A DNA stretch of 64,000 bases from Parasulfitobacter algicola. Lineage in GTDB: Bacteria > Pseudomonadota > Alphaproteobacteria > Rhodobacterales > Rhodobacteraceae. Positions 25,159 to 27,022 of this stretch are shown in pieces. The DNA is taken from positions 372,001 through 436,000 of the forward strand of contig NZ_JABUFE010000002.1 in NCBI RefSeq assembly GCF_013315265.1, read 5' to 3'. How positions within the stretch are numbered: position 1 is the stretch's first letter; each line of letters begins with the position of its first letter. A program made the position numbers and the translations under genes. Below the pieces are notes generated by a model, which searched no databases, was not told the DNA's origin, and saw only the letters and a program-made list of their open reading frames with translations.

Positions 25159-25323
25159 TTATTTTTTCGGTTTAACAATGCTACCTGAATTTGGTGGCGA
25201 TTTGTCACCTTCTGAAACTGATGGTTTATATCCAGTCTGTGGAGAATTAGGCTTGTATCCTCTGTCTTCATTGGGCTGATAACCATCGTTGATTATCTTT
25301 CTGCCATTTTCATCTTTGGACAT
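25159..25323 (-). CDS. GYxP-repeat microprotein (54 aa) downstream of the DUF6338-like gene
   Basis: ORF with ATG behind AGGA, 29 nt after the stop of the membrane-protein gene on the same strand. The product is hydrophilic and contains three spaced units GYQPN, GYKPN and GYKPS at residues 14-36, followed by a Pro/Ser-rich tail ending VKPKK. No Cys, no membrane segment, probably disordered. Base composition is AT-rich like its upstream partner and unlike the flanking genes. The regular repeat and coupling make it a believable gene; the function is unknown. Confidence 0.6.
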   Translation of the reverse strand: MSKDENGRKIINDGYQPNEDRGYKPNSPQTGYKPSVSEGDKSPPNSGSIVKPKK

Positions 25324-25352
25324 TTAACATTTTCCTATTTAGCCAACGATTT

Positions 25353-25952
25353 TCATTTAATAATTTCAACTGACAGAATTTCGTCTTCGTGTATCCATAT
25401 TCCTCTCTGGTAATCATCTGTTCCTATGACATTCCATTTATCATCAAGCACTTTTTCAATATATATATCGCGCTTTTCCAAATCCGATGAAGCAAAAGAT
25501 TCTGTACCAAAATATCCAAAAATTGGTTCGGAACTCTTTAGAGTTACAATAATCCAACAGCCTTTTCGCGTTGAGCCAAATAAATAATCCCACGCAGTAG
25601 GTGCAGGATGATGAATTGGGTGAATATGCGTAAAGTTGTAAACATATTTCATAAAGCCTTTCTGATAGATTACTCCAAACACAAGGCCCACAATAATGGG
25701 CCCTAAGAATACTAACAAAAATAATGTCAGAGGGTTATATTCTCCAACATAAATAAAGGTTGGTACAGTTAACGAGTAATAAAGTGATGTTATAATTACA
25801 TATTCCATCGAAGCACTTGCTATATTAGGAATACGGCCAGTTATAAATTGACTACGTAACAACATAATCAGAAAACCTGGTGCGCATAGAGAGATAGGTA
25901 AAATCGCAGTTTGGAGATTATCCCAATTTAATATCTTGAAGTACTGTTCCAC
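25353..25952 (-). CDS. DUF6338-like membrane protein in an AT-rich insert
   Basis: A 199-aa protein with about three hydrophobic segments in the first 105 residues (ILPISLCAPGFLIMLL, YVIITSLYYSLTVPTFIYV, TLFLLVFLGPIIVGLVFGVIY). A soluble C-terminal domain follows, with AWDYLFGSTRKGCWIIVTL and a GYFGTESFASSDLEKRDIYIEKV segment resembling DUF6338 proteins as I recall the family. It starts with GTG only six bases after the thyX stop, so it is expressed from the thyX side. Codon use is strongly AT-biased, a sign of recent acquisition. Function unknown. Confidence 0.7.
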   Translation of the reverse strand: MEQYFKILNWDNLQTAILPISLCAPGFLIMLLRSQFITGRIPNIASASMEYVIITSLYYSLTVPTFIYVGEYNPLTLFLLVFLGPIIVGLVFGVIYQKGFMKYVYNFTHIHPIHHPAPTAWDYLFGSTRKGCWIIVTLKSSEPIFGYFGTESFASSDLEKRDIYIEKVLDDKWNVIGTDDYQRGIWIHEDEILSVEIIK

Positions 25953-25958
25953 CTTTAT

Positions 25959-26864
25959 TTACCTCACAATACCCTCAAACTCCCGCCATTCGCCCTTGCT
26001 CATGCCCGACGTTTCCTGCGTGACGTCTTCCCCCGCCAGCATGCGTTTCAGGCAGTCGATTGCTTTGCCTGACAAGTTAGCGCCGCCCATGCGGTAATCT
26101 TCGAATGCGGCATAGGCGAAAGGGACCCAGTCTTTGACAACTTCGCAAATCGCATCGGCATAGACGCGGATTTCGTATTGCGCGTGGGCATCGGCGCGCA
26201 GGCGCAGAAAGTGGAACAAGTTGTGCAGATCGACCTTCCAATACCACTGCGTATAGATATTCGCGGGCAGGTTCATGCGGGCCAGTTCGCGGGCCAGGCC
26301 CTGTTGATCATCCTGGCTGATCATCTGTTGATAATGATCATAGGCGCGGTTGCTGTCAGATTTCAGAAATTCCAGCACGCGGGCGGCCTCTTCGCCCTGC
26401 AGCGCCTCGCCCCGACCCTGATTGTTCACCACCGATTGCGCAGCAAGATGTTCTGGGGCAGGGATATAAAATTCGCGATCCAGGATCGAATAGCGGGCCG
26501 AATATTCGTTTACATTTGCCGTGCGATGGCGAATCCATTGGCGGGCCACGAAGACAGGAAGTTTGACATGCAGCTTGATCTCGCACATCTCGAACGGGGT
26601 CGAATGCCAGTGGCGCATCAGATATCGGATCAGCCCTTCGTCATTGCTGACCGATTTGGTGCCCTTGCCGTAACTGACGCGCGCAGCCTGGGTGATCGCA
26701 TTGTCGTCGCCCATATAATCGATTACCCGGATAAAACCGTGATCCAGCACATCGTGCGCCTTATACAGATGCTGTTCCATACCGGGGCTGACCGCCCGCA
26801 AAGTGGGCTGCGGATTAGCCCGCAGGTCATCGATTTCGGCTTGTTGGTCTGGGCTAAGGGGCAT
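25959..26864 (-). CDS. thyX: FAD-dependent thymidylate synthase
   Basis: Makes dTMP from dUMP with methylenetetrahydrofolate and FADH2. The 301-aa product carries the ThyX motif R112-H-R114 followed by [11 protein letters not shown] to residue 125; the usual Ser of RHRxxSxNE is Ala116-Asn here. [26 protein letters not shown] upstream is also conserved. The ATG at 26864 follows GGAGGG; the frame runs 20 codons further up but the family starts at [10 protein letters not shown]. It is divergent from gloA and is followed directly by the AT-rich module. Confidence 0.95.
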
Positions 26865-27022
26865 TGGGCCCTCCGTCTGATCAGGAATGAGTCGCCCGCC
26901 ACTATATATGGGCTTTTGCCGCATCGGAACTTCTATATGCAGTGGCGATGGAATTATTAGCCCATGGGGTCGCAGTTTGCGATTTCGATGCTAAATTAGA
27001 ACAAACAAGCAGGGGGTTTTCC

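What the first reader, a model, noticed from the sequence alone, without database searches (positions are those of the whole stretch)
25159..25952. AT-rich two-gene module behind thyX: DUF6338-like membrane protein plus GYxP-repeat microprotein
A 199-aa three-segment membrane protein starts six bases after the thyX stop and is followed 29 bases later by a 54-aa protein with three GYxP units. Both are much more AT-rich than thyX and the ABC genes around them. Two co-oriented, compact, compositionally foreign genes dropped behind a core gene is the usual look of an accessory or defence cargo. I recall small GYxP-rich proteins near similar membrane proteins elsewhere, but cannot verify it here. 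The pair is my best candidate for an undescribed system.
Basis: partly seen in the sequence, partly recalled or inferred. Interest (0 to 1): 0.75.

Follow-up and report, generated by a model that had tools for sequence, protein, structure and literature searches.

The report
Membrane protein with dedicated proline-rich microprotein
Next to an ordinary thymidylate synthase gene sits a foreign two-gene unit, a membrane protein of unknown function and a tiny disordered partner protein; the same pair recurs in prophages, plasmids and bacterial defence regions, so it is probably an undescribed mobile, likely antiviral, system.

Summary
In detail: a 199-aa DUF6338 membrane gene and a 54-aa GYxP gene, both AT-rich, lie directly behind thyX. 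Of 94 non-redundant DUF6338 loci, 47 carry a small ORF with two or more GYxP motifs just downstream, 9 one motif (two are chance ORFs) and 24 a proline-rich tail; of 467 control ORF ends none has two motifs, and 11 of the 14 misses show a variant on reading. Codon changes show selection on the microprotein. In one E. coli prophage slot the pair alone fills a gap that other strains fill with unrelated genes. AlphaFold gives three membrane helices plus an Sm/LSm-like barrel. Neighbours include Gabija, Qat and Thoeris proteins; control neighbours have none at that level. A proteomics paper detected three small proline-rich proteins in a DUF6338 operon and took them as species-specific. Best model: a membrane effector whose LSm domain is controlled by its disordered partner, used against phages. 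Not shown: antiphage activity, binding (a fused fold did not dock the microprotein), any phenotype.

The parts
25353..25952 (-). DUF6338 membrane protein, 199 aa, GTG start
   Evidence: PF19865 E 9e-24; AlphaFold2 mean pLDDT 80.2, pTM 0.56
25842..25925 (-). predicted membrane helix 1 (residues 10-37)
25746..25811 (-). predicted membrane helix 2 (residues 48-69)
25662..25733 (-). predicted membrane helix 3 (residues 74-97)
25356..25595 (-). C-terminal Sm/LSm-like barrel with its leading helix (residues 120-199)
   Evidence: VIA-align best Z 7.9, rmsd 2.4, 66 residues; the 50 rows shown are Sm/LSm/Hfq chains or entries containing them
25159..25323 (-). GYxP microprotein, 54 aa
   Evidence: relatives behind DUF6338
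25273..25284 (-). GYQP unit
   Evidence: read
25249..25260 (-). GYKP unit
   Evidence: read
25222..25233 (-). GYKP unit
   Evidence: read
25333..25336 (-). AGGA, possible ribosome-binding site of the microprotein gene
   Evidence: read by eye
25959..26924 (-). thyX, the core gene at whose 3' end the module sits (insertion site, not part of the module)
   Evidence: TIGR02170; same-genus genome has thyX without the module

Best explanation
A horizontally moved two-gene accessory module, most likely an anti-phage one. Shown: a DUF6338 protein and a dedicated disordered microprotein are inherited as a pair. Predicted: DUF6338 has three membrane helices and a C-terminal Sm/LSm-like barrel. Inferred: the barrel lies in the cytosol and may bring several subunits together as Sm proteins do; the microprotein (aromatic GYxP units and a proline-rich, usually basic tail) is the ligand of that barrel and holds the membrane protein in check or arms it; an infection cue or, in some operons, a partner enzyme changes that contact, and the membrane protein then disturbs the membrane and stops the phage or blocks a second phage.
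For: Pairing: 47 of 94 non-redundant loci with two or more GYxP, 9 with one, 24 with a proline tail; controls 0, 14 and 29 of 467; 44 of 44 loci of the viral scan and 16 of 17 of the genome scan show such an ORF (the 17th ends at the contig edge; in L046 the units read SYxP). Selection: differences at codon positions 1/2/3 are 658/533/1314, 102/82/326 and 110/49/312 in three groups. Type of microprotein follows the DUF6338 tree: 12 changes against 31.3 in shuffles, 0 of 200 as low. Minimal unit: in E. coli ECONIH2 the pair alone lies between helicase and VRR-NUC genes (likewise), while seven other genomes hold other genes there. Mobility: prophages, Klebsiella phage-plasmid pJN2-26, Tn7-like element of Proteus plasmid pPp47, plasmids. 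Defence: PADLOC matches at E 1e-50 or better to PDC-S06, QatA, GajA, ThsA, ThsB, PDC-S45 and MzaA models among 98 neighbours; best in 98 control proteins 3e-22. LSm fold.
Against: No activity data. The fused AlphaFold model leaves the microprotein at pLDDT about 44-55, so no docking was seen. The LSm match is of middling strength (Foldseek best E 0.013; VIA best Z 7.9 and 8.1). The window's own neighbours are core-type genes, not defence genes (read by eye). The TIR gene near the E. coli pair is also there without the pair. 20 hand-picked neighbours with other PADLOC scans gave few strong hits, and of seven strong labels only four were traced to loci. Only one isolated phage record of 50,697 holds DUF6338.
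Confidence: 0.42

Rival explanations
1. Superinfection exclusion or envelope change by a prophage: the pair acts constantly in the inner membrane to block DNA entry of related phages, with no infection sensing; the microprotein is a structural subunit.
For: Found in 44 IMG/VR loci and in a lysogeny-side slot next to the integrase of an E. coli prophage; the pair stands alone there.
Against: Also on plasmids and in chromosomal defence regions, and in tight operons with CHAT or TIR-caspase genes.
Confidence: 0.2
2. Toxin-antitoxin or addiction pair: DUF6338 is a membrane toxin and the microprotein its neutraliser.
For: Small two-gene unit on mobile elements; a TA pair stands near it on pA52-2 and a MazF-like gene on pICHIJ1.
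Against: 10 of 52 loci carry two or more different microproteins; the order is large gene first. No toxicity data.
Confidence: 0.15
3. Membrane-anchored RNA-binding protein: the LSm domain binds RNA and the microprotein regulates this.
For: The barrel resembles Sm/LSm/Hfq proteins, many of which bind RNA.
Against: The conserved residues (HP..WD..F, SFASS) do not look like the Sm RNA-binding motifs as I recall them; not tested.
Confidence: 0.1
4. Peptide precursor and exporter: the microproteins are processed and exported by DUF6338.
For: Short, sometimes tandem and variable; the P. [quoted passage not shown]
Against: The tail is conserved rather than the start; no peptidase or modifying enzyme is a constant neighbour in the loci read.
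Confidence: 0.06
5. Chance ORF beside an orphan membrane gene, or a de novo gene limited to one species.
For: The P. stutzeri authors found no homologues beyond that species; tblastn with single microproteins finds almost nothing.
Confidence: 0.02

Closest known systems
Pfam PF19865 DUF6338
   Same: The larger protein is a member.
   Different: Pfam gives no function and no partner; the microprotein has no Pfam match.
DUF6338 operon with three proline-rich small proteins in Pseudomonas stutzeri (PMC10433244; section 19 and passages read)
   Same: DUF6338 gene plus small proline-rich proteins, there detected by mass spectrometry.
   Different: The authors call them not conserved beyond the species and perhaps new genes; here equivalents stand behind most DUF6338 genes read. 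I did not see their sequences, so identity with L165 is a guess. That subtype lacks GYxP.
Sm/LSm/Hfq fold proteins (e.g. 1m5q, 1jri, E. coli Hfq 4jrk)
   Same: Predicted fold of residues about 114-199.
   Different: Fused behind three membrane helices; ring formation and RNA binding untested.
MscS channels (recalled, no call)
   Same: From memory, three membrane helices followed by an Sm-like beta domain; this suggests an oligomeric pore.
   Different: MscS did not appear in the 50 rows listed; no sequence relation was tested.
TIR-caspase systems (type IV Thoeris, recalled) and CHAT protease systems
   Same: Stand directly behind the pair in Proteus pPp47 and a Streptomyces plasmid.
   Different: Absent from the other 112 of 114 DUF6338 loci searched with those two proteins, 113 for each.

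Membership tests
PF19865 DUF6338 | score above the curated cut-off over most of the profile | tested here: met
   84.6 bits against 26.5, profile 4-200 of 205
Sm/LSm superfamily (C-terminal domain) | helix plus five-stranded barrel fold | tested here: inconclusive
   50 of 50 listed rows are Sm/LSm/Hfq or contain them, but best Z only 7.9 and 8.1 and Foldseek best E 0.013; no PDB sequence relative at E 1 with the profile
Sm/LSm superfamily (C-terminal domain) | ring assembly and RNA binding | not testable with these tools
   none
GYxP microprotein family (proposed here) | small ORF directly behind DUF6338 with GYxP units and a proline-rich end | tested here: met
   window ORF: three GYxP, end IVKPKK, 29 bases behind DUF6338; 47 + 9 of 94 loci
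Known anti-phage systems (PADLOC 2.0.0) | match of a component to a PADLOC model | tested here: not met
   neither protein matches at E 5
Toxin-antitoxin system | toxic protein neutralised by its partner | not testable with these tools
   no expression data
Anti-phage defence in general | protection against phage | not testable with these tools
   only neighbourhood evidence

The most novel reading that the evidence does not exclude
DUF6338 and its microprotein are a stand-alone immune module of a kind not yet described: an oligomeric membrane pore gated through an LSm ring by an intrinsically disordered microprotein whose GYxP units and proline tail act as plug and infection sensor; tandem, diverged microprotein copies widen the range of cues, and TIR, caspase, CHAT or nucleotidyltransferase genes have been added upstream or downstream as extra switches in some lineages.
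Probability: 0.25. Interest if true: 0.9.

Novelty: categorically new. Interest (0 to 1): 0.72.

Why it matters
It gives a partner, an architecture and a testable role to a Pfam family of unknown function found in several bacterial phyla, and it places a whole family of 40-85-residue disordered proteins that annotation often misses. It also offers a different reading of published mass-spectrometry hits that were taken as possible new genes of one species. If the pair protects against phage, it adds a membrane-LSm effector with a disordered regulator to the known repertoire, small enough (about 0.8 kb) to be carried as prophage cargo.

Tried and rejected
Chance ORF: rejected. Known PADLOC, PHROGs or NCBIfam family: no match. 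Docking of the microprotein: tried once with a read-through fusion of L067, no confident contact. PDB sequence relatives: none credible; a potassium-channel match at E 0.83 covers two helices only and is not used. Alternative cargo of the E. coli slot against PDB, three proteins: nothing. Caspase, TIR, CHAT, nucleotidyltransferase, SLATT or E1/Mov34 as a constant third gene: rejected, each found in one or two of 114 loci with these queries. The 6-protein alignment A2 had no stretch to scan with. MscS did not appear among the rows shown, which proves nothing.

Caveats of counting. One search was given 134 loci after I left out thyX loci and eight weak or duplicate fragments; 128 had a DUF6338 ORF, 95 were non-redundant, one ended at a contig edge. 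Many loci came from scans seeded with six DUF6338 proteins (A3) whose own neighbours are of the GYxP type. Chance ORFs supplied the GYxP label in L161 and L170 and the proline label in L013. The tree is a quick one with 33 of 87 inner branches open and with 15 further loci left out as fragments, duplicates or weak. For PADLOC I passed 98 of 153 neighbour ORFs from 38 of 40 loci, chosen by hand for distance and length, and 98 of 103 control ORFs from 35 stretches taken at contig starts or fixed coordinates of the same genomes; 273 against 22 model families at E 1e-5 is inflated by methylase models. ThsA, ThsB and PDC-S45 were not traced to a locus.

Full report
1. What is there. GC and GC3 mark both as foreign to the thyX and ABC genes beside them. 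The genome holds this one DUF6338 gene. In the only other genome of the genus held, thyX is present without the module: the next ORF of size is one that I take, from memory, for an insertion-sequence transposase, and the ABC gene lies on another contig.

2. Is the small ORF real. DUF6338 is patchy: 19 of 385 genomes of the class, 19 of 398 of the phylum at E 1e-6, 30 of 298 of the family of G643, which looks like Pseudomonas. Reading downstream of these genes showed small proline-rich ORFs again and again, in plasmids and a phage-plasmid too. A script count over 94 non-redundant loci gave 47 with two or more G[YWFH]xP motifs, 9 with one, 24 with only a proline-rich end and 14 with neither; at 467 ends of other ORFs of the same loci the numbers were 0, 14, 29 and 424. 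Of the 14, eleven show a variant on direct reading (GYQP, GSYQP, GYFQP, GYTA, GYTP, GVRP or EGYV types); L037, L040 and L114 do not. In 52 loci of the GYxP type the 66 microproteins have a median of 54 residues, GRAVY -1.36, and x is Q in 122 of 160 motifs; ten loci carry two or more copies. Third codon positions change two to three times as often as first positions, the mark of a translated, selected protein. The kind of microprotein follows the DUF6338 tree: a branch of 23 rows is of the polyproline kind throughout once two chance ORFs are set aside, so the two genes have been inherited together.

3. Unit and mobility. In E. coli the pair sits between the helicase and VRR-NUC genes of a prophage inserted near yfhL. 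The helicase is in 155 of 5426 genomes; five genomes match DUF6338 at the DNA level. I read three slots with the pair and seven without: those hold other genes, mostly AT-rich, such as single unknown proteins, a PI-PLC-domain gene with a cytosine methylase, or three unknown genes. In ECONIH2 DUF6338 and the microprotein fill the gap and nothing else does. So two genes are enough to be cargo. The viral scan returned 44 loci, many of them near copies. In Proteus plasmid pPp47 the pair is cargo of a Tn7-like element.

4. Surroundings. Named neighbours: Hachiman HamA and helicase, nucleotidyltransferase and SLATT genes, TIR and caspase genes, metallohydrolase and Mov34-type gene, CHAT gene four bases behind the microprotein, type I restriction gene, DUF4062 and RelE. 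In the unbiased whole-genome hits, 98 neighbour proteins match PDC-S06, QatA, GajA, ThsA, ThsB, PDC-S45 and MzaA models at E 1e-50 or better; 98 control proteins of the same genomes reach only 3e-22. GajA and PDC-S06 lie in L217, QatA in L216, MzaA in L196. Against this: neighbours in many loci are unknown or core genes, the E. coli TIR gene is there with or without the pair, and the window's own flanks are not a defence island.

5. Structure. AlphaFold2 with 37 sequences gives helices at 10-37, 48-69 and 74-97 and a barrel at about 120-199. The structures listed by VIA-align are Sm, LSm and Hfq chains (best Z 7.9 for the window protein, 8.1 for L067), at the level where the tool advises care. 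I expected this from the sequence (a 'V.LKDG' strand pair), so the agreement counts for something. The residues kept in 37 sequences lie in helix 1 (PGF), at P85 and in the barrel part (HP, WD, F, W, G, S, G, E). The fused chain of L067 left the microprotein disordered: no support for docking, though a single subunit in a single copy is a weak test.

6. Literature. DUF6338 occurs in one paper of the library, PF19865 in none; four further searches on motif, defence, Sm domain and microprotein terms gave nothing nearer, and one on VRR-NUC hotspots gave a listing of two papers that I did not read. The one paper (section 19 read) reports three proline-rich proteins under 50 residues in a predicted operon with DUF6338 in P. 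stutzeri, well expressed, and suggests new genes. This is the nearest thing to proof of expression, at one remove.

7. Reading. The pair is a mobile accessory module; the defence role is the best guess from company and carriage; the mechanism, LSm domain held by a disordered ligand, is a proposal that the anatomy suggests and the tools could not confirm.

Noticed in passing
thyX 3' end, window 25952-25959 and loci L119, L120, L127, L129, L134, L137, L140, L141: In 8 of 28 readable relatives an unrelated ORF of 267-486 aa begins -39 to +1 bases from the thyX stop; GC 46-51% against thyX 56-72%. The thyX 3' end looks like an accessory-gene slot in this family; Pfam hits include DUF4062 and GIY-YIG/DUF4357.
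   Followed up: partly
L259 4069-4866, L262 4031-4741, L140 698-1501: Two AT-rich membrane proteins from the E. coli prophage slot are related (E about 1e-13), and the thyX-slot protein of L140 shows a similar G..(Y/S)(Y/F)G start by eye (below detection): perhaps another cargo family.
   Followed up: no
L107, L108, L259-L266: E. coli prophage slot between helicase and VRR-NUC genes with exchangeable cargo of unknown function.
   Followed up: partly
L109 8001-10221: DUF6338, microprotein, TIR and caspase genes in a row behind TnsABCDE-type genes on plasmid pPp47.
   Followed up: partly
L113 5656-9974: Streptomyces plasmid: DUF6338, 48-aa GYTP protein and CHAT gene in a tight row.
   Followed up: partly
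L078, L096, L111, L157, L165: Three small proline-rich ORFs in tandem, all different, behind one DUF6338 gene.
   Followed up: partly
L111 2513-7096: Metallohydrolase and a 764-aa Mov34-type gene run into DUF6338 on an Acinetobacter plasmid; L110 carries them in pieces.
   Followed up: no
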